A DNA stretch of 64,000 nt, taken from assembly GCA_016196035.1 (NCBI GenBank), contig JACPYM010000111.1:1-64000 (forward strand), written 5' to 3'. The notes below the pieces were generated by a model, which did no database searches, was not told the DNA's origin, and worked only from the letters and a program-made list of their open reading frames with translations. This document shows positions 8,031-63,966 of the stretch, one piece after another (the first letter of the stretch is position 1; each line of letters starts with the position of its first letter). The translations under genes were made by a program, and so were the position numbers. The stretch comes from Acidobacteriota bacterium (GTDB lineage Bacteria; Acidobacteriota; Blastocatellia; RBC074).

Positions 8031-8204
8031 GATCGGTTTGCACTTCGGTGTATGGCAAAAAGCCGCGCCGGGACAGTACCGCGCGCGTGAGCAAGCGGCG
8101 CTTCGGCGTTGCGTCAGTCAGCCGTGCTTGACGCGCCGCTTGCTCACGCGCGCGGTACTGTCCCGGCGCGGCGCGCCTACCGTACACGCAACTGAAAACC
8201 GATC
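8031..8204 (-). mobile_element. MITE-like element, copy 2
   Basis: 174 bp with perfect TA duplication on both sides (8029-8030 and 8205-8206). Termini are GATCGGTTTGCAC / TGAAAACCGATC. The internal stem GGGACAGTACCGCGCGCG pairs with its exact complement near the other end. It sits 49 bases upstream of the short-chain dehydrogenase start. A long reading frame opening inside the element runs into that gene but is not a real N-terminus. Confidence 0.9.
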
Positions 8205-12234: not shown

Positions 12235-12408
12235 AACAGTTTGCAATGGCGGTTGCGGGAGTCAGTTGACGCTGGAACAGTACCGCGCGCGTGAGCAAGC
12301 GGCGTGTCAAGCTGGCACCATTGGCTAAACTGCCAAAGCTCCGCTTGCTCACGCGCGCGGTACTGTCCCGCTGCGCGGTTTTCCCGCACACCGTAGTGAA
12401 AACCGACT
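12234..12408 (+). mobile_element. MITE-like element, copy 3
   Basis: 175 bp. The left terminus is slightly decayed (GAACAGTTTGCAATGGCG); the right terminus is GTGAAAACCGACT. TA precedes the left end (12232-12233) and follows the right end (12409-12410). The TA plus the first element base form the TAG stop of the amidohydrolase. It is nearly identical to copy 5 throughout, including the loop, so one of the two is a recent transposition. The AraC start lies only 17 bases downstream. Confidence 0.9.
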
Positions 12409-24177: not shown

Positions 24178-24349
24178 ATCGGTTTTCACTTCGGTGTACG
24201 GGAAAACACTGAGCGGCGGGACGGTACCGCGCGCGTCAGCAAGCGGTGTTTGAGCCGTTGAACCACTGGTGCAGCGCCGCTGCGCCGCTTGCTGACGCGC
24301 GCGGTACCGTCCCCACACACTGCCCCGTATACGCAATTGCAAACTGATC
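24177..24349 (-). mobile_element. MITE-like element, copy 4
   Basis: 173 bp with TA on both sides (24175-24176, 24350-24351). Its arms are swapped relative to copies 3, 5, 8 and 9: GATCGGTTTTCACTTCGGTG on the left and CGCAATTGCAAACTGATC on the right. The internal stem has GGTACCG where most copies have AGTACCG, matched by the complementary change on the other arm. It starts within the aroE stop codon. Confidence 0.9.
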
Positions 24350-36851: not shown

Positions 36852-37025
36852 ATCAGTTTGCAATGGCGTATACAGGAGTCAGTTGACGCTGGGACAGTAC
36901 CGCGCGCGTGAGCAAGCGGCGTGTCAAGCTGGCACCATTGGCTAAACTGCCAAAGCTCCGCTTGCTGACGCGCGCGGTACTGTCTCGCTGCGCGGTTTTC
37001 CCGTGCATCGTAGTGAAAACCGATC
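36851..37025 (+). mobile_element. MITE-like element, copy 5
   Basis: 175 bp with perfect TA duplication (36849-36850, 37026-37027). Terminal sequences GATCAGTTTGCAATGGCG and GTAGTGAAAACCGATC. The loop contains a small hairpin TTGGCTAAACTGCCAA shared with copy 3. It begins in the boxC stop codon and intervenes between boxC and boxB. Confidence 0.92.
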
Positions 37026-41734: not shown

Positions 41735-44671
41735 TTATTCGAGCCAGTTCAGCACGATGGTGAAAGGCGCTGTCGCGGCGTCTTCGAGATTGGTCACCAG
41801 CAGGAATTTGCGCCCGTCGCTCGACACCTCATAACCGCGCCCTGCGGTCTTGAGCGCGCGCAGATCAAACAATTCATTCGGCGCGCCCGGCTTAAACGCC
41901 GCGCCCTGACTTTGCACCGCGACAGCCATCAGCTTGCCGTCCGCCGCGACATAAAACAATTCCTTGCCGTCGTTGCGCCAACGCGGCTGGTCGCCGCCTT
42001 TGATGGAAACCTGCCACTTGCCGCCGGTCAGCGCGTTGGCGGCGAAGCCCTGCACATACACTTCGTTGCTGCCCGATTCGTCCGACACCCAGGTGAGCCA
42101 GCGTTCATCGGGCGAAAGGCGTCCGCCGGTTTCGTTGAAGGCCGATTGCAGCAGTGCGTAAGGTTTGTGCGTGCCCTCGAGTGGCAGCGCCCACACGTCC
42201 CATTTCGTTTGCGGCGCGCTGTCTTGAAAGAGAATCAGCCGTCCGTCGGCGGCCCAGTCCGTGGGGAATTTTTGCTGGCCGGAGCGGAACAGCAATTCGT
42301 CCTGCCCCGCGCCGTTCGCGGCCTTTTGATAAAGGCTCGAAGCGCCGTCGCGCGTCGAAACCCAAGCGAGGCGGCTGCTGTCGGGCGACCAAAGCGGAAA
42401 CATGTCATTGGCCGGATCGAAAGTGAAACGCAATTCGGTACCGCGCGCCAGATCGAGCACCCACAAATCCGCCGCGCCCGCTGCCGGATCGGGCCGCGCC
42501 GTGACGAGCCGCGTTTCATCGGGTGCCAGACTCGCGCCGAGATAGCGATTGACCGAACCGAGTTCGCCGAGTTGCTTGCCGGTGCGGTCGAACCAGGCGG
42601 GCTGCTGACGATTATTCGCCGGGTTGCCGGTGGCATACGCTAATACGCCGTTGGCTGAAACCGAAAAGCCGCCGCGTCCGAACGCGCCGCCCGCCAACTG
42701 TTCGGCCAGGCGTTCCGGTTCGCCGCGCAACTGGCGCGCGGCCGCATCGAATGCTTGCGCGTACAACGCGCCGTCGCGCATAAACAGCAATGCGCCGCCG
42801 CGCGCGCCTTTGGCATACAGCGCGGGCGAGGTCGCACTCAGCAACCGCCGCCGCGCGCTGCCGTCGAGCGCGGCGACATAGATGCCTGTTTCGCTCGCTT
42901 GTTGGCCGGTGACCAGATAAAGGTAATGGCCTCCGTCGGGCAAAAAGCTGGGCCATTGATGGTTGCTCTCTTGCCGCGCGGCGTCGGGCGTGGTCAACGT
43001 CGCCGCCGCCCCCCCCGCCGCCGTGATGCGCTGTATGCCTGCGCTCGGATGAGGCACAAACAGGATGACGCCGTCACGATTCCATGCGCCACCGCGCGGG
43101 CTGGGCGCGTCGGCCAGCGTGACCGGCGATTCGCCGTTGAGCGCGAGGCGTTTGAGTTTGCCTTGCGCAAAAAAACCGAGGCTTTGCCCGTCGGGCGACC
43201 AGAACGGCGCGCTGGCTCCTTCGGTGCCTGCCAGTGGTTGCGCGCCCAATGAACTCAAGGGGCGCAGCCATAACGACGAGCGATTGCCTTCGGTGGCGGC
43301 GCTGAAAACGAGGCGGCGGCCATCGGGTGCCAGCACCGGATCGCTCATGCGCGTGACTTTGTCGGGCGGCGCAAGCGAGAGCCGCAGCGTTTCGGCTGGC
43401 GGCGTGGCGCGTTTGAAAGAGCTGGTGAAATAACCCGCGCCGAACGCGAGCGCGGCACAGGCGACACAAAACCAAACCCATTGAACAGCGGTAAAACGCC
43501 GCCACCAGCCAACGGAGGCCGCCTCCTGCCGCAGCGTGACGGCTTCGGCTGAAGGCAAGCCTGACGTTGTCAAGGCTTCGAGCGCAAAGCCCAAATCGCT
43601 GACCGATTGAAAGCGCTGCTCCGGGCGCTTTTCGAGACAGCGGTGAATGATGCGTTCCAGCCCCGGCGCTTGTGCGCGTTGTAGCGCGGGCAGTTCCGGC
43701 GGTTCGTGGTTGAGAATCGCGTTCATCGTTTCAACTGCCGTCGCTCCGCGAAAGGGCCGCTCACCCGCGAAAAGCTCATACAGAATCACGCCGAACGCAA
43801 AGATGTCGGCGCGCTGGTCGGCCTCGCCGCCGCGCACCTGTTCGGGCGCCATATAACCCACCGTGCCCAGCACCATGCCCGGATTGGTTTGCACCTCTTC
43901 CGCCGCCAGTTTGCGCAGCGTGTCGTTCGTCGCCGCGCTCGCCGCGCTGGTTTCAGCCGCCGCTTTGAAACGCGGCGGCACGAGTTTGGCCAAACCGAAA
44001 TCGAGAATCTTTACTCGTTCGTCGGTGGTGATGAAGATGTTTTCGGGTTTCAGATCACGATGGACGAGGCCGCGTTCGTGCGCCGCCGCCAGCCCGCGCG
44101 CGATTTGCAAGGCGAACTCAACTGCTTTGCGGGGCGGCAGCGGGCCGCGTTTGAGCCAGGTGCGCAGCGTTTCGCCCGCGAGCAATTCCGACACGAGATA
44201 GGGCACGGTTTCGTGCGTGCCGACATCGTGCAGTGTGAGGATGTTCGGATGGTTGAGCATGCCGACGGCACGCGCTTCCTGCTCGAAGCGGCGCAAGCGT
44301 TCGTCATCGCGCGCCAGCGCGGCGGGCAAGACCTTGACGGCGACCTTGCGCCCCAGCCGTGTGTCCTGCGCGGCGTAAACTTCGCCCATGCCGCCCGCGC
44401 CGACAAACGCGAGCAATTCGTAATGGCCGAGCCGCTGGCCGATGCGCAAGCCCTGCGGCTGGGCGCTGACCAACTGCGCCGCGTCGCGCATGGCGGGCGC
44501 GGCAATGAAATCGCCCACCGACTGTTCCGCCGCCAACATGGCTTCGATCTCGCGGCGCAACTCGGCGTCACCGGCGCAAGCCTGCGCGAGAAACGCGGCG
44601 CGCGGCGCGGCTGACAAGGCGCTCGCCGCTTCGTAAAGATTGCCGATTTGTTCCCAGCGTTCAGGCGTCAT
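41735..44671 (-). CDS. Serine/threonine protein kinase with PD40/TolB-like propeller
   Basis: 978 residues. An N-terminal segment (about 1-80) precedes the kinase: GAGGMGEVYAAQD (glycine loop), VAVKVLP (catalytic Lys), GLVHRDLKPENIFI (catalytic loop), KILDFGLAKL, and the VLGTVGYMAPEQVRGG segment. A single transmembrane helix near 400 (WVWFCVACAALAFGAGYF) leads to a six-bladed TolB/PD40-like domain with PVLAPDGRRLVFSA, PFWSPDGQSLGFF, and LSPDERWLTWVSD. This is the usual Acidobacteriota layout for an extracytoplasmic sensor kinase. It ends the minus-strand operon with the small membrane protein and ECF sigma factor upstream. Confidence 0.9.
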   Translation of the reverse strand: MTPERWEQIGNLYEAASALSAAPRAAFLAQACAGDAELRREIEAMLAAEQSVGDFIAAPAMRDAAQLVSAQPQGLRIGQRLGHYELLAFVGAGGMGEVYAAQDTRLGRKVAVKVLPAALARDDERLRRFEQEARAVGMLNHPNILTLHDVGTHETVPYLVSELLAGETLRTWLKRGPLPPRKAVEFALQIARGLAAAHERGLVHRDLKPENIFITTDERVKILDFGLAKLVPPRFKAAAETSAASAATNDTLRKLAAEEVQTNPGMVLGTVGYMAPEQVRGGEADQRADIFAFGVILYELFAGERPFRGATAVETMNAILNHEPPELPALQRAQAPGLERIIHRCLEKRPEQRFQSVSDLGFALEALTTSGLPSAEAVTLRQEAASVGWWRRFTAVQWVWFCVACAALAFGAGYFTSSFKRATPPAETLRLSLAPPDKVTRMSDPVLAPDGRRLVFSAATEGNRSSLWLRPLSSLGAQPLAGTEGASAPFWSPDGQSLGFFAQGKLKRLALNGESPVTLADAPSPRGGAWNRDGVILFVPHPSAGIQRITAAGGAAATLTTPDAARQESNHQWPSFLPDGGHYLYLVTGQQASETGIYVAALDGSARRRLLSATSPALYAKGARGGALLFMRDGALYAQAFDAAARQLRGEPERLAEQLAGGAFGRGGFSVSANGVLAYATGNPANNRQQPAWFDRTGKQLGELGSVNRYLGASLAPDETRLVTARPDPAAGAADLWVLDLARGTELRFTFDPANDMFPLWSPDSSRLAWVSTRDGASSLYQKAANGAGQDELLFRSGQQKFPTDWAADGRLILFQDSAPQTKWDVWALPLEGTHKPYALLQSAFNETGGRLSPDERWLTWVSDESGSNEVYVQGFAANALTGGKWQVSIKGGDQPRWRNDGKELFYVAADGKLMAVAVQSQGAAFKPGAPNELFDLRALKTAGRGYEVSSDGRKFLLVTNLEDAATAPFTIVLNWLE

Positions 44672-44683
44672 GCAATTTCCTTC

Positions 44684-44896
44684 TTACGAGCGCGGCAGGC
44701 GTTTGAGCAAGCGGCAAGCCCAAAGACAGAGCGCCACAGCGGCAAGCGTGAGGACAATATAAAAAGGGTCTTTTGCCAAAGCAGGGCCTTCTTCGATAAC
44801 GCGCCAGATGTGAGCCACGACAATCAGGCCGAACACTGCGCCCGTGGTGATGAGATAAGCCTTCATATCTTTTTCGTTATTTCCGACTTGTGTCAC
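44684..44896 (-). CDS. Small membrane protein between sigma factor and kinase
   Basis: Up to 70 residues with two likely membrane helices (AYLITTGAVFGLIVVAHIW and FYIVLTLAAVALCLWACRLL). A GTG at 44896 overlaps the sigma-factor TGA (GTGA), which suggests translational coupling; the ATG at 44866 (MKAYLITTG) is the alternative start and begins directly at the helix. No family name is known to me. It probably accompanies the kinase. Confidence 0.65.
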   Translation of the reverse strand: MTQVGNNEKDMKAYLITTGAVFGLIVVAHIWRVIEEGPALAKDPFYIVLTLAAVALCLWACRLLKRLPRS

Positions 44897-45471
44897 ACGA
44901 CTTGATTCAACTCACGGTACAACCACAGCCGCGCCAGTTTCCAATCGCGTTGCACGGTGCGCAGCGAAACCTTGAGCGCCTCGGCGGATTCCTCTTCGCT
45001 CAGGCCGCCGAAATAACGCAACTCGACGACCTGGGCCTGGCGCGGATTGAGCGCCGCCAAGCGCGTCAGCGCGTCATCCAACGCCAGCAAATCGGCGCCG
45101 CGTTCGGGCGCGACGGCCAACGCTTCGTCGAGCGAAACCTGTTGCGCGCCGCCGCCCCGTTTAAGGTTCTGCCGTGAACGCGCGAAATCCACCAGAATGC
45201 GCCGCATCAATTGCGCCGAGACGGCGAAAAAGTGCGCGCGGTTTTGCCAGCGCACCTGACTCGAATCAATCAGCCGCAAATAGGCTTCGTTGACCAGCGC
45301 CGTCGTTTGCAAGGTATGGCCGGGCCGCTGCCGCCGCAAATGCCGCGCCGCCACCTGCCGCAATTCCGCGTAAACCAACGGCATCAATTGGGCGAGCGCG
45401 GCCTCATCGCCTGCGCCCCAGGCGAGCAAGAGTTGGGTGATTTGTGGTGACGTAGACTTTTCCATTGGCAA
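44893..45471 (-). CDS. ECF-type RNA polymerase sigma factor
   Basis: 192 residues. The region-2 pattern is LVYAELRQVAARHLRRQRPGHTLQTTALVNEAYLRLID, the acidobacterial/planctomycete ECF subfamily that carries this TTALVNEAY signature. It is followed by RAHFFAVSAQLMRRILVDFAR, then region 4, PRQAQVVELRYFGGLSEEES...RTVQRDWKLARLWLYREL. It lacks an obvious anti-sigma partner; the downstream kinase may fill the regulatory role. The start may be the first or third codon (MPM). Confidence 0.9.
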   Translation of the reverse strand: MPMEKSTSPQITQLLLAWGAGDEAALAQLMPLVYAELRQVAARHLRRQRPGHTLQTTALVNEAYLRLIDSSQVRWQNRAHFFAVSAQLMRRILVDFARSRQNLKRGGGAQQVSLDEALAVAPERGADLLALDDALTRLAALNPRQAQVVELRYFGGLSEEESAEALKVSLRTVQRDWKLARLWLYRELNQVV

Positions 45472-45652
45472 TTCACAAGACGTTCATTCTAGCCGCACGT
45501 TCACAGCTTTTTCTGCGAGTGAGAAAAAAACTTTCCGCGCGTGGCGGGTTTTGCCGCCAGATTCCGTCTCATGTGGGTGAGGGCGGCAAGCGGCTGTCCC
45601 GGCAGAATCTCAAACGTATCATCAAGTCGTCGTCTCAAATAGGAAAAAGGAT

Positions 45653-48445
45653 ATGAAAAGCAAGAGTTTCAATTGGTTGGCGGTTGTCTTCACGGTTTTA
45701 ATTGCGGCGTTCACGCTGCAAGCCCAAAGCCTCAACACCCTGCGCGGGCAAATCGTTGACGAAACCGGCGCGCTCATTCCCGGCGCGGTCGTGACGCTGA
45801 CGGGCGCGAATGGCAAGCCGCTCACCGCGACGGCCAACGCCGTGGGCGAATTCGCGCTGCCCAATCTGGCGGCGGGCGTTTATGCGCTGCGCGTGGCGGC
45901 GGAAGGCTTTCAGCCCTTCGCGCAAAAGGCCGTGAATGTGCCGCTCGCGGGCGGGCCGTTGAAAATCACGCTGGCGATTGCCGCGATGAACATCGTCGAG
46001 GAAGTCAAAGCCGAGGAAACCGGCGCCTCAGTCGAGCCGGATCAAAACCTGAGCGCCGTCGTCCTGGGCGAAGATTTCATCAAGACGCTGCCCGACAACG
46101 AAGACGACCTCAAACAACAGCTCGAAGCGTTGGCCGGTCCGGGGGCAGGCCAGGGCGCGCAGATCATGATTGACGGCTTTAGCGGCGGACGGCTGCCGCC
46201 GCGCGATGCGATCCTGCAAATTCGCGTCAACCAGAACCCTTACGCCGCCGAATTCGCGCAATCGGGTTTTGGCCGCATCGAAATCATCACCAAGCCGGGT
46301 AACGACAAATGGCGCGGCAGTGCGAGCTACAACCTGCGCAATTCGGGGCTGGATGCGCGCAACGCCTTTGCCCGCGTCAAACCCGAAGTCGCGCAAAACC
46401 GCTATTCGTTCAACCTGAGCGGCGCGTTGATTCCGAAAAAGATGTCCTTCTTCGCCAACATCGAACGGCGCGGTTTGGAAGGCAGCAGCGCGGTCAACGC
46501 CACGACGCTCGACGGCGTCTTCGTCGCCAACGTGCCCGCGCCCAACACCAGCACGTCGTTCAATCTGCGCACGGATTACCTGTTGAATCAGCGCAACACG
46601 CTCAACGTCAGTTACAACCTCTTTCGCAACGACAGCCAGAATCGTGAATTCGCCGTGCGCTTTGGCGGCGGCGGGCCGGGCGGTGGTGGGCCGGGTGGCG
46701 GCGGAGGCGGTTTTGGCGGCGGCGGCTTGGCGGTGAGCGGCAATTACATCTTGCCCGAACGCGGCACAAATGCCGTGAACAACAACCAGACCTTGCAAAT
46801 CGGCGAGACTTACATCGTCAACAGCAACCTGCTCAACGAGGCGCGTTTGCGCTTCCAGCACGAAAGCGGTTCGGCGCAACCGGTCACGCCCAGTCAGGTT
46901 GCCATCAATGTGCTCGACGCCTTCAACGGCGGCGGCTCGACGGTGTCGAACACGACGCGCGGCAACAATCTCGAATTTCAAAACTACCTGACCTGGACGC
47001 GCAAACGGCACACCCTCAAAGGCGGCGTGCAGTTTCAATACGAGACCAATCACAACGAAGACGCCAGCAATTTTAACGGCACCTTCACTTTCTCAAGTCT
47101 CGATCAGTATCGCCGCGTGCTGGCGGGCGAAACCCTAAGCGGGCTGGCGGCGGCGCGTTATCAATACACGGTCAATCGCGGCGCGACGTTGCTGGCTTAC
47201 AACCGTTATGAAGCCGCCTGGTTTGTGCAGGACGACTTCCGCGTCAAACCCACGCTCACGCTCTCGTTCGGCTTGCGCCACGAGTTTCAGCAGTATTTGC
47301 AGGACAAAAACAATCTGGCGCCGCGCTTCGGCCTGGCCTGGTCGCCTTTCAAAGACCGTAAGACGACGGTGCGCGTGGGCGGCGGCGTCTTCTATACACG
47401 CCTCAACGGCAGCCTTTATGAAAACACTTTGCGTTACGACGGCGTGCGCCAACAGAGCATCGTCATTCAAAACCCGTCGTACCCCGACCCCTTTGCGGGC
47501 GACGCGGCGTTGCGTATCACCAACACGATCACGCGCACGCTGGAATCGAACCTGCGCGCGCCTTACACGGTCAATCTTTCCGCCGCCATCGAACGCCAAT
47601 TGCCCAAAGGGCTGACGGGTTCGCTGACCTATATTTACACGCGCGGCCTGCACCAGTTCCGCACGCGCAATATCAATGCGCCTTTCACCGACGCGGACGG
47701 CGCCGTGACGCGCCCACTCGGCGATGTCGGCAACATTTACGAACTGGAATCATCGGCGCGTTCGCAATACCACGGCCTGCAATTCCGTTTGGATCGCCGC
47801 CTGGGGCGCAACTTCAACGTGTTTAGCAATTACTCGCTCTCGTTCAGCCGCAGCGATGCTGACGGCGCCAGCGCGCTGCCCGCGAACAATTACGACCTGC
47901 TCAACGAATGGGCGCGCGCGGCCAACGACCGCCGCCACACCATCTTTGTGGGTGGGCGCGTCTCGCTGCCTTACGGTCTGAGCCTTTCGCCGTTCGTGTC
48001 AGCTTCGTCGGGCGCGCCTTACACGATCACGACGGGCAGCGACGACAACGGCGACACGTCTTTCAATGACCGCCCGCTCGGCCTGGGCCGCAACACGGCG
48101 CAAGGCCCCGGCAATTTCAACGTGAACATGAACGTCAGCAAAACCTTCAGCTTCGGCGCGCGCAAAGACACGAACGGGCAGGCCGCGCAAGGCGGCGGCG
48201 GCTTTGGTGGTGGGGGCGGCGGACGCGGCGGGTTCGGCGGCCCCGGTGGTTTTGGCGGCCCCGGTGGTGGCGGTAACGAAGGCAGCGGACGATTCAACGT
48301 GCAGTTGACGGCGCAAATCTCAAACCTGCTCAACCGCGTCAACTACGGGCAATTCAGCGGCGTGCTGAGTTCGCCTTACTTCGGCTTGCCCAGCAGCGCG
48401 AGCGCCGCGCGGCAATTGGAACTCGGCGTGCGCTTCAGCTTTTAG
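45653..48445 (+). CDS. TonB-dependent receptor-like protein with Gly-rich inserts
   Basis: 930 residues with signal peptide (LAVVFTVLIAAFTLQAQ). N-terminal CarboxypepD_reg-like domain (TLRGQIVDETGALIPGAVVTL, FALPNLAAGVYAL), then a plug-like part (MIDGFSGGRLPPRDAILQIR, YAAEFAQSGFGRIEIITKPG) and barrel strands to a C-terminal ARQLELGVRFSF. Two glycine-rich runs (from about residue 337 and from about residue 845) are unusual for a barrel and may lie in loops. It is divergent from the sigma-factor gene; AGGAAAAAGGAT precedes the ATG. The substrate is unknown. The stop is directly followed by the cas1 relic. Confidence 0.85.
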   Translation: MKSKSFNWLAVVFTVLIAAFTLQAQSLNTLRGQIVDETGALIPGAVVTLTGANGKPLTATANAVGEFALPNLAAGVYALRVAAEGFQPFAQKAVNVPLAGGPLKITLAIAAMNIVEEVKAEETGASVEPDQNLSAVVLGEDFIKTLPDNEDDLKQQLEALAGPGAGQGAQIMIDGFSGGRLPPRDAILQIRVNQNPYAAEFAQSGFGRIEIITKPGNDKWRGSASYNLRNSGLDARNAFARVKPEVAQNRYSFNLSGALIPKKMSFFANIERRGLEGSSAVNATTLDGVFVANVPAPNTSTSFNLRTDYLLNQRNTLNVSYNLFRNDSQNREFAVRFGGGGPGGGGPGGGGGGFGGGGLAVSGNYILPERGTNAVNNNQTLQIGETYIVNSNLLNEARLRFQHESGSAQPVTPSQVAINVLDAFNGGGSTVSNTTRGNNLEFQNYLTWTRKRHTLKGGVQFQYETNHNEDASNFNGTFTFSSLDQYRRVLAGETLSGLAAARYQYTVNRGATLLAYNRYEAAWFVQDDFRVKPTLTLSFGLRHEFQQYLQDKNNLAPRFGLAWSPFKDRKTTVRVGGGVFYTRLNGSLYENTLRYDGVRQQSIVIQNPSYPDPFAGDAALRITNTITRTLESNLRAPYTVNLSAAIERQLPKGLTGSLTYIYTRGLHQFRTRNINAPFTDADGAVTRPLGDVGNIYELESSARSQYHGLQFRLDRRLGRNFNVFSNYSLSFSRSDADGASALPANNYDLLNEWARAANDRRHTIFVGGRVSLPYGLSLSPFVSASSGAPYTITTGSDDNGDTSFNDRPLGLGRNTAQGPGNFNVNMNVSKTFSFGARKDTNGQAAQGGGGFGGGGGGRGGFGGPGGFGGPGGGGNEGSGRFNVQLTAQISNLLNRVNYGQFSGVLSSPYFGLPSSASAARQLELGVRFSF

Positions 48446-48449
48446 CTCA

Positions 48450-48677
48450 GTTAGCCGAAGCCTGTGCGCAATTCGACCAGCGTATAGATACGCGGATGAC
48501 GCAAGTGCCGCACTGATTCGCGGCTATGAAGGGCAGGCGGCGAGTTTGTATTTCGAGGTGTTCAGTTTGCATTTGCAGCAACAGCGCGACGATTTCGCCT
48601 TTACGACGCGGTCGAAACGTCCGCCGGGCGATGTGATCAACTGTTTGCTGTCTTATCTGTACGCGCTCGGCCAACGA
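48450..48677 (+). pseudogene. Relic of a cas1 gene (CRISPR integrase)
   Basis: The frame around 48510-48668 reads ALIRGYEGQAASLYFEVF, then LQQQRDDFAFTTRSKRPPGD and VINCLLSYLYAL. This is the Cas1 core signature (R-G-x-E-G-x-A-A-x-x-Y-F ... R-x-x-R-P-P-x-D-x-V-N-x-L-L-S-x-x-Y). A short preceding stretch in another frame, LAEACAQFDQRI, also fits, implying a frameshift near 48505. Upstream and downstream Cas1 sequence is missing, and no CRISPR repeat or cas2 is seen nearby. This is a fragment of a lost type I-like locus, not a working gene. Confidence 0.7.
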
Positions 48678-48747
48678 GGCCCGATGAGTGTTCGCCTTGC
48701 TGCTGTTGACTTGATACATAAGAACTGTTATCAGATGCTAGTTCACT

Positions 48748-49503
48748 ATGAGGTCTACAGTATCCACTGTTGAAGAAGCCCTAAGCCAAACGGGCGTGAC
48801 GATAGCCTCCTTGCAGGACGCGGAGAAACGCGCCCTGGATGAGCGGGGCTATCTCCTGCTGCCAGGAATTATTGACGCCACTTGGTTGGGGCAGATGCGC
48901 GCGGCGTTTGAGGCGATTGCGGCGTTTGAACGCCAAGGTGTTAGCGGCAAAGAAACTGGTACGCGCCATCCGGGCGATTTGCTGAACCGCGACCGAGCTT
49001 TTCTGGACGTTTGCTCGCAACCCAAAGTGTTGGCCGCCGCGCATCAAGTGCTGAGGCGCTCTTTCCGATTGACCCAATGCGCGGGGCGCGATCCGCTGCC
49101 GGGGTTTGGCCAGCAAGGTTTGCACACCGATTGGATGCCGCGTGCGCCGCACGAACCGTTTTACGTCGTGACTGCCATCTGGCTGTTGGATGATTTCACT
49201 GCCAGCAATGGCGCGACACGGGTCGTGCCGGGCACGCATCTGCTGAAAGGCGGTGAGCCAAAAAACCTGGCGGATCCGGCGGCGCATCACCCGGCGGAAT
49301 TGCGCGTGACGGCTGCGGCAGGCGCGGTGCTGGTTTTCAACGGCCACCTCTGGCACAGCGGTACGCGCAATGACAGCACGCGCTCGCGCCGGGCTGTGCA
49401 ATGTGTCTTTCATGCGCGCGAGACCGTTCCGCCCTTTACGCAGCCGTTACACAATCAGCCGACGGAATTGCCGCCCGCCGTGCGCTACCTGCTTGGTTGT
49501 TGA
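48748..49503 (+). CDS. Phytanoyl-CoA dioxygenase (PhyH)-family protein
   Basis: 251 residues. The iron ligands fit the family: LHTDWMP (His-x-Asp) near 126 and GHLWHSGTRND with the distal His followed by the 2-oxoglutarate-binding Arg later (RAVQCVFHARE). ERGYLLLPGII near the N-terminus is typical. It should be a Fe(II)/2-oxoglutarate oxygenase hydroxylating a small molecule. No operon partner is visible; a truncated MITE copy follows immediately after the stop. Confidence 0.85.
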   Translation: MRSTVSTVEEALSQTGVTIASLQDAEKRALDERGYLLLPGIIDATWLGQMRAAFEAIAAFERQGVSGKETGTRHPGDLLNRDRAFLDVCSQPKVLAAAHQVLRRSFRLTQCAGRDPLPGFGQQGLHTDWMPRAPHEPFYVVTAIWLLDDFTASNGATRVVPGTHLLKGGEPKNLADPAAHHPAELRVTAAAGAVLVFNGHLWHSGTRNDSTRSRRAVQCVFHARETVPPFTQPLHNQPTELPPAVRYLLGC

Positions 49504-49652
49504 ACGGATCCCAAGCAGCGGGACAGTACCGCGCGCGTCAGCCAGCGGCGTGTCACATCTGGCGCACTGGGTCAACGGCGTAGTGCTCCGCTTGCTGACG
49601 CGCGCGGTACTGTCCCGCTGCTACACGCTCTTCCGTACACGCCACTGAAAAC
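49504..49652. mobile_element. MITE-like element, copy 6 (ends truncated)
   Basis: The central part is intact: GGGACAGTACCGCGCGCG to CGCGCGCGGTACTGTCCC, with GCTTGCTGACG and its counterpart TCAGCCAGC. The left outer arm is missing and the right arm ends at CACTGAAAAC without CGATC. It directly follows the PhyH stop. Confidence 0.8.
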
Positions 49653-49778
49653 ACTCCCCTGCCAAAGTGCGGTTAGCGCTTGCCAAAAACCGGCCTCGTC
49701 GCCATGCTCGCCGTGGCTGGCGGCGCCGCGCTCCCCGCGCAAATTCCCGCGCCGCCTGAAACGCAGGAGAAAAAGACC

Positions 49779-52700
49779 ATGACGTTAGCTGAAGTCTGTG
49801 TGCGTCGCCCCGTCTTTGCGACGATGCTGGTGCTGTTTCTGGTCGTGCTGGGCGTGTTTTCGTTTATGGATTTGGGCGTAGACCTCTTCCCCAAAGCCGA
49901 CCCGCCTATCGTCAACGTGCGCATCAAACTGCCCGGCGCAAGCCCCGATGAAGTGACCAGCCAAATCGTGCTGCCAGTCGAAGAACAAATCAGCAGCGTC
50001 AGCGGTCTGGATGAATTGGAAATCTGGTCAATGGATGGGCTGGCGCGCATCACCTGTCGCTTCGCCCTCGACCGCAAGATGGAGGATGCCGCACAGGACG
50101 TGCGCGAAAAGGTCGCGCTGGCGATGGGCAAGCTGCCGCCCAATACACAACCGCCCGTCATCACCAAAGCCGATCCCGAATCCGACCCGATCATCACGCT
50201 GGTCGTGGGCGGCCCGCGCAATTTGCGCGAGATTACCGAAATCGCCGACAAGCAGATCAAACGCACGCTGCAAACCGTGGACGGCGTCGCCGCGATTGAC
50301 ATCGTGGGCGGGCGCGACCGCGAGATTCAAATCCTGCTGGACGCCGAAAAACTCAACAGCCATCGCATCACCGTCAATCAGGTCGCGCGCGCGCTGCAAA
50401 ACGAAAATATCGAAGCGCCCGGCGGCAGGTTGTATCAAGGCACGGAAGAACTGGCCGTGCGCACGATGGGCCGTTTCGACGTGGTACGCGAATTCAGCGA
50501 TCTGATCGTCTCAAGCACGAGCAGCGCGCCGATCAAGGTCTCCGATTTGGGTCACGTCGAAGACATCTTTGCCGAGCCGCGCAGCTTCGCCAGACTCGAC
50601 GGCAAACCGGCGGTCACGTTGCAAATCCGGCGGCAGGCCGGTACTAACACCGTCAAAGTCGTGGACGCCTTGCGCGAGAAACTCGACAAGCTGCGTCCGA
50701 CCTTGCCCAACGATCTGACGATCAATGTCATCAGCGATCAATCGCAATTCATACGCGCTTCGATTGCCGCGTTGCAGGAACATCTGCTGCTGGGCAGTTT
50801 GCTGGCGAGCCTGATTATTCTGCTGTTCATCCGCAACTGGCGCGCGGTGCTGATTTCGTCGCTGGCGATTCCGGCTTCGATCATCGCCACCTTCACGCTG
50901 ATGCGTATCGCGGGGTTCACGCTCAACAACATGACGCTGCTGGCATTGACGCTGGCGGTCGGCATCGTGATTGATGACGCGATTGTGGTGCTCGAAAACA
51001 TCTTCCGCCATCTTGAAGAATTGCATCGCTCGCCCATGCAGGCCGCGATCGAAGGCACGAAAGAAGTCGCCTTGGCCGTGACCGCGACGACGCTTTCGCT
51101 GGTCGTGATCTTCGTGCCCATCGCGTTTATGACTGGTTACGCGCAACGCTATTTGAATGCTTTCGGCTGGACGATGACCTGCGCGATTATGGTTTCGTTG
51201 CTGGTGTCATTCACGCTGACGCCAATGCTGGCCGCGCGCTTTTTGCGCCGCGACGCCAGCGAAGTGAAGCTCTCGAAGCAGACGGCGCTCTTCACCTGGT
51301 TCGAGCACCACTATGAACGTATGCTCAACTGGTCGCTCGATCATCCCTGGGTGATCCTGGGTTTGAGCGTGCTGGTTTTCGCCACGACCTTCCCGCTCAA
51401 CCGCATGGTCGGGCGCGATTTCATCCCCAGCGATGATCAGGGCGAATTCACCATTCACGTGGATTTGCCCGAAGGCCTGTCGCTCGCGGGCCTGAACAAA
51501 TTTGTAAACGACATCGAACCGAAGTTGCAGCAGTTGCCCGAACTCAATCACTTGCTGACGCTCTCCAGCGAGCGGCTCAATCACGTCCATTTCACGCCCA
51601 ACCTGATTGACCTCGACAAACGCAGACTCAGCAGCCAAGAAGTTGGGGCTATTGCGCGCAAAATCTTCGAGCAGGTGCCCCAGGCGCGTCACAAAATTGC
51701 GTACCCCTCGGCCCTGGGCGGTGGCGAATCGCTGGGCTTCCCGATTCAGGTGCAATTGCTTGGCCCCGAACTGGACAAACTGGGCGAGCTGGCGCGGCAG
51801 GCGGGCGATGAAATCCGCGCCCTGCCGGGCATCGTCAGTTCCGAACCGTCGTTCTTTTTCGCCAGCCCCGAATTGCGCGTGACGCTTGATCGCGCGCGCG
51901 CCGCCGAACTGGGCGTGCGCGCCAACGATGTCGCCAGCGCCGTGCGCCTGCTGATGAGCGGCGAAGACGAGATCACGACCTACCGCGAAGCCGGCGAACA
52001 ATATCCGGTCAAAATCATGCTCGACGAAAAACAGCGCAGCGACCGCGAGATTCTTTCGCGGCTGATGGTGCCGTCGTCCAAGCTCGAACAAGTACGCATT
52101 GACAACGTCGCCGGCATCGCGCGCGGGTTGGGACCGTCGCGCATCAACCGTTTCAACCGCCAATACAACATCCCCATCTTCGTCGCCAACGCGCCCAGCA
52201 AGCCGATGAACGAAGCGGTCAAAGACATCACGCAGGCGATGACGAAACTAAACTTTCCGCCGGGCTATCGCTACTTTTTCGGCGGCAACGTCAAAGCGCT
52301 GGACGAGACGACGAGCAATCTGATCATGGCCTTTCTGCTCGCCATCGTGTTTATGTACATGGTGCTGGCGGCGCAATTCGAAAGCTTCACGCACCCGTTC
52401 ATCATCCTGCTGGCGCTGCCGTTAAGCGTGCCCTTTGCGCTGTTGTCGCTCTATCTGACGGGCCGCACACTGAATCTGTGGAGCACGCTGGGCGTCTTGC
52501 TGTTGCTGGGCATCGTCAAAAAGAACGCGATTTTGCAAGTGGATTACACCAACCACCTGCGCGCCGAAGGGCTGTCGGTGCGCGACGCGATTCTGCAAGC
52601 CGACCGCGCGCGCTTGCGCCCGATTCTGATGACGACGTTCTCGATCATCGCGGGCCTGATTCCGACGGCCTTTGGCAGCGGCGCGGGCAGCGCGCAACGT

Positions 52701-52874
52701 TCGGCCATCGCCGTCACGATCATCGGCGGACAGTTGTTCTGTCTGTTGCTGACGCTGTTGCTGACGCCGGTCGCCTATGAGTTGCTGGATCGTTGGAGTC
52801 CACGGCTGTTGCGCGTGCGGCAGTGGCGTTGGAAGGCGCTCGTCAAAGGCGCGAGCGAAAAGCCGAACGGATAA
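49779..52874 (+). CDS. RND-family efflux pump inner-membrane transporter
   Basis: 1031 residues from the ATG at 49779 (CAGGAGAAAAAGACC upstream). The N-terminal membrane helix follows CVRRPVFATMLVLFLVVLGVF, then the large periplasmic loop, helices including ALTLAVGIVIDDAIVVLENI with the paired Asp typical of proton relay, a second periplasmic loop, and the C-terminal LGIVKKNAILQVDY and GLIPTAFGSGAGSAQRSAIA. It is an AcrB/MdtBC-like HAE1 pump, usually partnered by an adaptor protein, which is not adjacent. The frame is open back to 49680 with a signal-peptide-like stretch (LVAMLAVAGGAALPAQ), possibly the remains of another gene fused in frame. Confidence 0.92.
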   Translation: MTLAEVCVRRPVFATMLVLFLVVLGVFSFMDLGVDLFPKADPPIVNVRIKLPGASPDEVTSQIVLPVEEQISSVSGLDELEIWSMDGLARITCRFALDRKMEDAAQDVREKVALAMGKLPPNTQPPVITKADPESDPIITLVVGGPRNLREITEIADKQIKRTLQTVDGVAAIDIVGGRDREIQILLDAEKLNSHRITVNQVARALQNENIEAPGGRLYQGTEELAVRTMGRFDVVREFSDLIVSSTSSAPIKVSDLGHVEDIFAEPRSFARLDGKPAVTLQIRRQAGTNTVKVVDALREKLDKLRPTLPNDLTINVISDQSQFIRASIAALQEHLLLGSLLASLIILLFIRNWRAVLISSLAIPASIIATFTLMRIAGFTLNNMTLLALTLAVGIVIDDAIVVLENIFRHLEELHRSPMQAAIEGTKEVALAVTATTLSLVVIFVPIAFMTGYAQRYLNAFGWTMTCAIMVSLLVSFTLTPMLAARFLRRDASEVKLSKQTALFTWFEHHYERMLNWSLDHPWVILGLSVLVFATTFPLNRMVGRDFIPSDDQGEFTIHVDLPEGLSLAGLNKFVNDIEPKLQQLPELNHLLTLSSERLNHVHFTPNLIDLDKRRLSSQEVGAIARKIFEQVPQARHKIAYPSALGGGESLGFPIQVQLLGPELDKLGELARQAGDEIRALPGIVSSEPSFFFASPELRVTLDRARAAELGVRANDVASAVRLLMSGEDEITTYREAGEQYPVKIMLDEKQRSDREILSRLMVPSSKLEQVRIDNVAGIARGLGPSRINRFNRQYNIPIFVANAPSKPMNEAVKDITQAMTKLNFPPGYRYFFGGNVKALDETTSNLIMAFLLAIVFMYMVLAAQFESFTHPFIILLALPLSVPFALLSLYLTGRTLNLWSTLGVLLLLGIVKKNAILQVDYTNHLRAEGLSVRDAILQADRARLRPILMTTFSIIAGLIPTAFGSGAGSAQRSAIAVTIIGGQLFCLLLTLLLTPVAYELLDRWSPRLLRVRQWRWKALVKGASEKPNG

Positions 52875-53002
52875 ACGGTACCGCGCGCGTGAGCAAGCGG
52901 AGCCTGAGCTGCCGCACCAGTGCGCCAAACTTGACGCTCCGCTTGCTCACGCGCGCGGTACCGTATCGCTGCACGTTTTTCTCCAAACATTGAAGCGAAA
53001 TC
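52875..53002. mobile_element. MITE-like element, copy 7 (left arm lost, right arm decayed)
   Basis: Starts at the RND stop with ACGGTACCGCGCGCGTGAGC and contains the complementary GCTCACGCGCGCGGTACCGT. The outer left arm is absent; the right arm is degenerate (CATTGAAGCGAAATC) and runs up to the ATG of the next gene, supplying its 5' leader. Confidence 0.8.
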
Positions 53003-53680
53003 ATGACAACAGAAACAATCGCAATCATTGGCGGCACGGGCGACCAGGGTCGCGGCCTGGCGCTGCGCTGGGCCAAAGCCGGTTATGCCATCATCATCGG
53101 CTCACGTGACGCCGCGCGCGCGGCTGCGGCGGCGGAAGAGATGCGCGCCGAACTCGGCGGCGTGCCGAACATCACCGGCTTAGCCAATGCCGAAGCCGCC
53201 GCGCAAGCCGCCATCGTCGTCTTGGCCGTGCCTTTCGCCGCACAAACGCCTACGCTCAAAGGCATCGTGCAGAGCCTGCAGCCCGGCACGTTGCTCGTGG
53301 ATGTCACCGTGCCGCTCGAACCGGCGGTGGGCGGCAAGCCGACGCGGGTGTTGGGCGTGTGGGCCGGTTCCGCTGCTGAACAAACCGCCGAACTCGCGCC
53401 CGCCGGGGTCGAAGTCGTCGCGGCCTTTCACAATGTTGGCGCGGATGCGCTCAGCGCTCTCGCACACGAGGTCGAATGCGACATCCTCGTGTGTGGCGAC
53501 AAGAAAGATGCCAAATTGCGTTTACGTCCGCTGGTCGAAGCCATTCCCGGTTGCCGCTATGTTGACGCGGGGGTGCTCGCCAATGCGCGCATCGTCGAAG
53601 CCATGACCGCGCTGCTCATCGGCGTCAACATTCGCTACAAAACGCACACCGGCATTCGCGTGACCGGGTTGCCCGCCTGA
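53003..53680 (+). CDS. NADPH-dependent F420 reductase-like protein (NpdG family)
   Basis: 225 residues. N-terminal dinucleotide-binding motif IAIIGGTGDQGRGLALRWAK, IGSRD, then VLAVPFAAQTPTLK, LLVDVTVPLEP, AFHNVGADALS, and AGVLANARIVEAMTALLIGVN at the end, matching the NpdG (F420:NADP oxidoreductase) family. Whether it uses F420 or another deazaflavin, or only NADP, cannot be told. No F420 biosynthesis genes are visible here. The 5' leader is made of MITE copy 7, and no typical Shine-Dalgarno is seen. Confidence 0.78.
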   Translation: MTTETIAIIGGTGDQGRGLALRWAKAGYAIIIGSRDAARAAAAAEEMRAELGGVPNITGLANAEAAAQAAIVVLAVPFAAQTPTLKGIVQSLQPGTLLVDVTVPLEPAVGGKPTRVLGVWAGSAAEQTAELAPAGVEVVAAFHNVGADALSALAHEVECDILVCGDKKDAKLRLRPLVEAIPGCRYVDAGVLANARIVEAMTALLIGVNIRYKTHTGIRVTGLPA

Positions 53681-53723: not shown

Positions 53724-54001
53724 TGACTGACTCCCGCTTCCTGACTCCTGATTCCTGCTAGACCGGTTTGCAATTGCGTTTACGGGAGCGCGTTGGGCCG
53801 GGACAGTACCGCGCGCGTGAGCAAGCGGCGCGTCAAGTTTACGCCGTTGGCTGAACCGCCCAGGCTCCGCTTGCTGACGCGCGCGGTACTGTCCCGCTGC
53901 GCAACTTTTCCCATCCACCGATGTGAAAACCGATCTAAATTGAAAATCAGCCAGTATTTTCAGTTGAGCAGGAATCAGCAACCGGGCATCAGGAGTCAGT
54001 C
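53724..54001. repeat. Palindromic repeat of the CTGATGCC...GGCATCAG type, split by a MITE
   Basis: Left arm GACTCCTGATTCCTG (to 53757) and right arm CAGGAATCAGCAACCGGGC plus ATCAGGAGTCAG (to 54001) belong to the same palindromic family as 38626-38723. They are separated by MITE copy 8 at 53761-53935. Without it the unit is about 101 bp, matching the intact copy. Confidence 0.8.
53761..53935 (+). mobile_element. MITE-like element, copy 8, inside another repeat
   Basis: 175 bp, perfect TA on both sides (53759-53760, 53936-53937). Termini GACCGGTTTGCAATTGCG and GTGAAAACCGATC. Because the host repeat has a sister copy without the element, the insertion boundaries are fixed to the base. Confidence 0.92.
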
Positions 54002-63791: not shown

Positions 63792-63966
63792 AAGCGGTTT
63801 GCAATTGCGTTTATGGAATCGTGTTGTGCCGGGACGGTACCGCGCGCGTGAGCAAGCGGCGCGCCAAGCTTCCGCCCTTGGCCGAGTCGCACAGGCTCCG
63901 CTTGCTCACGCGCGCGGTACCGTCCCGCTGCGCGGCTTTTCCTATACACTGATATGAAAACCGATC
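63792..63966 (+). mobile_element. MITE-like element, copy 9
   Basis: 175 bp. The left terminus is AAGCGGTTTGCAATTGCG after TA (63790-63791); the right terminus ATGAAAACCGATC is followed by TA. The internal stem carries the GGTACCG variant on both arms, as in copies 4 and 7. Confidence 0.9.

What the first reader, a model, noticed from the sequence alone, without database searches (positions are those of the whole stretch)
48450..48677. Stranded cas1 relic with no CRISPR array
About 55 codons give the Cas1 core (IRGYEGQAASLYFEVF ... RSKRPPGDVINCLLSYLYAL) directly after a TonB receptor gene, with a frameshift before it and nothing of Cas1 after it. This records the loss of a type I-like CRISPR locus or a rearrangement that carried a piece of cas1 here.
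Basis: partly seen in the sequence, partly recalled or inferred. Interest (0 to 1): 0.55.

Follow-up and report, generated by a model that had tools for sequence, protein, structure and literature searches.

The report
Short leftover of type I-C cas1
A stretch of about 165 bases between two ordinary genes is a broken-off middle piece of a CRISPR gene (cas1, type I-C) from a bacterium that otherwise shows a different, complete CRISPR system; it is best read as an ordinary gene relic.

Summary
Window 48504-48668 (+) encodes 55 residues of Cas1 (Pfam PF01867 58.7 bits, E 6.9e-16). The best NCBIfam model is type I-C Cas1c, positions 155-211 of 340. Only the central block is there. The next 34 codons match no Pfam family.

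The genome's only other Cas1 hit is type I-E, in a full cas operon with an array on contig C45, so it is not the source. The nearest intact relative found is the type I-C cas1 of same-family genome G008 (77% DNA identity over 150 bases). In the own genome I found no other I-C gene DNA (capped candidate lists), no Cas8c and no I-C-like repeat pair (control).

Best reading: a pseudogene fragment of a lost or passing I-C system, without function. Whether the locus stood here or a piece was joined in is undecided: no relative with this gene neighbourhood was found. Two other class genomes hold cas1 pieces inside contigs. Low interest.

The parts
45653..48445 (+). TonB-type outer-membrane beta-barrel receptor, 930 aa, open frame intact; its stop is just upstream of the relic
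   Evidence: PF25183 OMP_b-brl_4 E 1.1e-76; PF13620
48446..48503 (+). stretch between the receptor stop and the sure start of Cas1 homology; origin undecided, no significant Cas1 match in the frames tested
48504..48668 (+). cas1 fragment, 55 codons, central block of a type I-C Cas1; no stop inside
48669..48747 (+). stretch up to the next gene's start without recognisable Cas1; no Pfam match; GC 0.48 against 0.59 for the window
48748..49503 (+). phytanoyl-CoA dioxygenase (PhyH) family gene, 251 aa, open frame intact
   Evidence: PF05721 E 7.8e-23

Best explanation
The stretch is a pseudogene fragment: the central block of a type I-C Cas1 (55 residues of a protein whose model has 340 positions) left between two unrelated genes after the remainder of a type I-C locus was deleted, or after a short piece was joined in by illegitimate recombination. 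It has no working role as Cas1. Shown: identity, nearest subtype, truncation at both ends, no other I-C part found at the sensitivity used, an unrelated complete I-E system elsewhere. Inferred: that the piece was stranded fairly recently, that it makes nothing useful, and that deletion or illegitimate joining was the cause.
For: Cas1 profiles: PF01867 58.7 bits over residues 9-63 of the frame; the best NCBIfam model is TIGR03640 type I-C, 64.2 bits over positions 155-211 of 340, far under that model's 385-bit cut-off for a whole Cas1c; PADLOC Cas1c ranks first. Nearest relatives among 162 class genomes, the own one counted, are the cas1 of G008 (73% over 55 aa) and G004 (65% over 62 aa). G008's gene (Cas1c 413.5 bits) stands with Cas3c, Cas8c, Cas7 (Cas7b model 295.2 bits, Cas7c 286.2) and Cas2c, Cas5c and Cas4c, and a long array. 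DNA queries of that operon found in the own genome only the cas1 piece among cas genes: 70 rows (the cas1 piece, 68 on an interspersed repeat, one 82-base match between cas8c and cas7), and, with the repeat left out, 2 rows (both between cas8c and cas7) and 2 (the cas1 piece and a 33-base match at the repeat's edge). No Csd1/Cas8c. No ATTGAAAC pair at 58-76 bases, a pattern that gave 119 matches in the G008 locus. Of 30 columns invariant in four other I-C sequences the fragment keeps 28. Differences from G008 by codon position are 7, 7 and 23.
Against: No genome with the same receptor-PhyH neighbourhood was found, so neither the empty site nor an intact ancestor is seen. The codon-position bias and the 28 of 30 kept columns would also fit continued selection on a small protein; 153 bases in three genomes cannot separate the two. 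The absence searches scored only part of their first-look candidates (40 of 170, 40 of 101 and 40 of 59), and the assembly is not complete (estimate 96.92), so an overlooked I-C remnant is possible.
Confidence: 0.9

Rival explanations
1. One form of the best reading: a whole type I-C locus once stood between the receptor gene and the PhyH gene, and a large deletion left only this block of cas1.
For: The fragment lies in one direction with loss on both sides; same-family genomes carry I-C cas1. In G136 of the same class a decayed I-C module is seen: a cas1 3' part (Cas1c E 6.5e-55), a cas2 in two frames and two repeat copies.
Against: No other I-C trace or repeat was found beside the piece or in the own genome. 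None of the 23 loci compared (relatives and own paralogues) holds receptor and PhyH together, or the fragment beside either.
Confidence: 0.45
2. Another form of the best reading: a short piece of cas1 DNA, from a lost I-C locus elsewhere in the genome or from incoming DNA, was joined in here by end-joining or with a mobile element.
For: The piece is short and stands alone. The genome is rich in palindromic interspersed repeats, one of which lies just past the PhyH gene.
Against: No flanking repeat that stands out from chance-like short matches; no second copy of the stretch among the candidates scored in the own genome (12 of 113).
Confidence: 0.45
3. The 75-codon frame 48546-48773 is a kept small protein with part of the Cas1 core, a domesticated gene.
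For: Open frame without stops; third-position bias of differences from G008; 28 of 30 conserved columns kept.
Against: No free small relative seen: every hit outside the own genome listed lies in an open frame of at least 213 codons; the frame's last 34 codons match no Pfam family; no sigma-70-like promoter by consensus at 48380-48800; the block holds only one of the three catalytic residues of Cas1 (recalled, no call).
Confidence: 0.03

Closest known systems
Type I-C Cas1 (Cas1c, TIGR03640; Pfam PF01867)
   Same: Central block matches 57 of 340 positions at E 1.1e-17; 73% identical to G008 and to G004 over 55 columns
   Different: N-terminal and C-terminal parts missing; no cas4, cas2, effector genes or array found beside it
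Own type I-E system on contig C45
   Same: Carries a Cas1 of the same superfamily
   Different: Subtype I-E (TIGR03638 381.4 bits), with cas2e, cas6e, cas5e, cas7e, cas8e, cas11e and cas3e and an array; no DNA match to the piece
Other cas1 pieces inside contigs in the class: G136:C223 and G011:C37
   Same: Truncated cas1 away from a contig end
   Different: G136 keeps the C-terminal part, from residue 222 of the G004 protein as numbered, beside a two-frame cas2 and two repeat copies; G011 keeps profile positions 176-264

Membership tests
Cas1 (PF01867) | sequence match above the curated cut-off | tested here: met
   58.7 bits against 22.3
Cas1 (PF01867) | full-length protein | tested here: not met
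   only profile positions 147-198 of 283; no significant extension upstream
Type I-C Cas1 (TIGR03640) | whole-protein score above 385 bits | tested here: not met
   64.2 bits, partial; it is the best-scoring NCBIfam model
Functional type I-C CRISPR-Cas locus | cas3, cas5, cas8c, cas7, cas4, cas1, cas2 and an array | tested here: not met
   no other I-C operon DNA found (capped candidates), no PF09709, no repeat pair (control), no array in the window
cas1 pseudogene | recognisable but truncated gene without its context | tested here: met
cas1 pseudogene | no functional product | not testable with these tools
   needs RNA or proteomics

The most novel reading that the evidence does not exclude
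The frame is a kept small protein built on the Cas1 core block; or cas1 of type I-C has a preferred breakage point, since this piece ends at residue 219 of the G004 protein and the G136 piece begins at residue 222.
Probability: 0.04. Interest if true: 0.4.

Novelty: new member of a known kind. Interest (0 to 1): 0.12.

Why it matters
It matters little beyond annotation. It suggests that a lineage with a complete I-E system once held, or received DNA from, a I-C system of the kind still intact in a same-family genome, and so adds one trace of CRISPR-Cas turnover in this class. It also warns that a short Cas1 hit is not a CRISPR locus.

Tried and rejected
Source in the own intact cas1: rejected, because that gene is type I-E and a blastn of 48446-48760 against its locus gave no match at E up to 0.01.

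Frameshift upstream: the frame-1 peptide joined to the core (90 of 200 shuffles as good) and its alignment with three I-C linkers (224 of 2000) show nothing. One gap-free tblastn match to the G004 protein starts right after the receptor stop in the frame of the piece itself (75 aa, 58.7%), but its first 24 residues are weakly alike, so the left edge stays open between 48444 and 48504.

Mobile element carrying the piece: (58 genomes, the own one counted) gave one match in the own genome, the place itself, and one in G008, its real cas1. At most 12 candidates were scored per genome there (12 of 113 in the own), so this is not exhaustive. The repeats around the piece look like chance matches.

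Same neighbourhood in relatives: the PhyH protein in 10 genomes and the receptor in 11, the own one counted in both (candidates capped), gave paralogues. In the 23 returned loci that I compared, 4 held PhyH alone and 19 the receptor alone; none held both, the RND transporter or the fragment. These loci reach about 1.5 kb beyond the match or less. The first such script had capped its matches per locus, so I repeated it without the cap. G001, the one same-genus genome, had no Cas1 match but is only 73% complete.

Other scans: spacers of the visible end of the own I-E array gave no match in the window. Rfam gave no match at gathering cut-offs in 44500-53500. First genome contigs and viral-contig scans with the 97-codon frame found no relative. 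The second genome scan with a five-row alignment gave 30 loci, best 76% over 51 residues. Four paper searches were seen as listings only; none was opened and nothing here rests on them.

Full report
What is there. Between a receptor gene (45653-48445) and a PhyH-family gene (48748-49503), both with intact frames, lie 302 bases. The frame of 48480-48770 has no stop, and its residues 9-63 match Pfam Cas_Cas1 positions 147-198 of 283 at E 6.9e-16. NCBIfam ranks type I-C Cas1c first (64.2 bits), then Cas4g/Cas1g (59.8) and I-D (53.9). PADLOC also ranks Cas1c first. With so short a piece, subtype rests on these scores and on the nearest relatives.

Edges. In the listed class relatives the match mostly ends at residue 63-76 of the query frame, in one weak case at 89; DNA alignments with G008 and G004 end at 48665-48667 and protein alignments at 48668. 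The remaining 34 codons match no Pfam family. Upstream, the profile match begins near 48501-48504. The join point was my choice and the peptide is short, so the tests are weak, but a frameshift is not shown.

Source. The own genome's other Cas1 hit, two rows in one frame on C45, is type I-E (TIGR03638, 381.4 bits). Beside it the seven proteins scanned were named Cas2e, Cas6/Cas6e, Cas5e, Cas7e, Cas8e, Cas11e and Cas3e, and an array runs to the contig end. The piece is closest to other cas1 genes of I-C type: G008, 77% in DNA over 150 bases, and a MAG labelled Proteobacteria (F1-120), 72% over 152 bases. G008's gene (Cas1c, 413.5 bits) stands with Cas3c, Cas8c, Cas7 and Cas2c, Cas5c and Cas4c, and a long array.

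What is missing. A 9.7 kb query of the G008 operon gave 70 rows in the own genome: the cas1 piece, one 82-base match at C135 that falls between cas8c and cas7, and 68 rows on an interspersed repeat that sits between cas4 and cas1 in G008. Since only 40 of 170 candidates were scored there, I repeated the search without the repeat: 2 rows, both on the stretch between cas8c and cas7 (40 of 101 scored), and 2 rows, the cas1 piece and a 33-base match at the repeat's edge (40 of 59 scored). Csd1/Cas8c was not found in the own genome. A pair of ATTGAAAC at 58-76 bases was not found; the same pattern gives 119 matches in the G008 locus, but it would miss arrays with another repeat end.

State. Against G008 the 153 aligned bases differ at 7, 7 and 23 sites in codon positions one to three; with G004 as third sequence the changes unique to the fragment are 3, 2 and 6, those unique to G008 4, 4 and 8, those unique to G004 11, 2 and 18. 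Of 30 columns invariant in four other I-C sequences the fragment keeps 28 and departs at two. So the piece looks as if it lost its gene fairly recently, or lay under constraint for most of the time since the split. The data cannot date it.

How ordinary it is. Among 162 class genomes, the own one counted, 69 hold a Cas1 match. Of the short partial matches I looked at, those in G054, G048, G037 and G135 sit at contig ends, while G011:C37 and G136:C223 lie inside contigs. G136 keeps the cas1 3' part from residue 222 of the G004 protein on, a cas2 in two frames and two repeat copies. I did not examine every partial row. This piece ends at residue 219, so two break points lie close together; with two cases this may be chance.

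Verdict. A pseudogene fragment of a type I-C cas1, stranded between two unrelated genes. Deletion of a local I-C locus and joining-in of a short piece are about equally likely, because no relative with this neighbourhood was found.

Noticed in passing
window 49516-49625: Palindromic repeat of about 105 bases just after the PhyH gene; similar copies at 96-194, 8069-8165, 12274-12374, 24212-24313, 36891-36991, 52875-52971, 53799-53900 and 63830-63931, a REP-like family.
   Followed up: partly
L020 8476-8702 (G008) and many places in G000, e.g. G000:C83:14622-14846, C69:65977-66160: A second interspersed repeat of about 190 bases with AAGCCCTGAAAGGGC-like arms, matching on both strands; it gave 68 of the 70 rows and sits between cas4 and cas1 in G008; no copy found in the window itself.
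   Followed up: partly
L020 6451-6532 (G008); G000:C135:37378-37459 and C59:124135-124208: A third short shared stretch of about 80 bases, 77% identical, lying between cas8c and cas7 in G008 and at two places in G000.
   Followed up: no
L117 1478-2571 (G136:C223): Decayed type I-C adaptation module: cas1 3' part only (Cas1c E 6.5e-55), cas2 split over two frames, and two copies of a repeat after it.
   Followed up: partly
L021 7579-7854 (G011:C37): Another cas1 piece inside a contig, 35% identical to the G004 Cas1 over 93 residues; neighbours not identified.
   Followed up: partly
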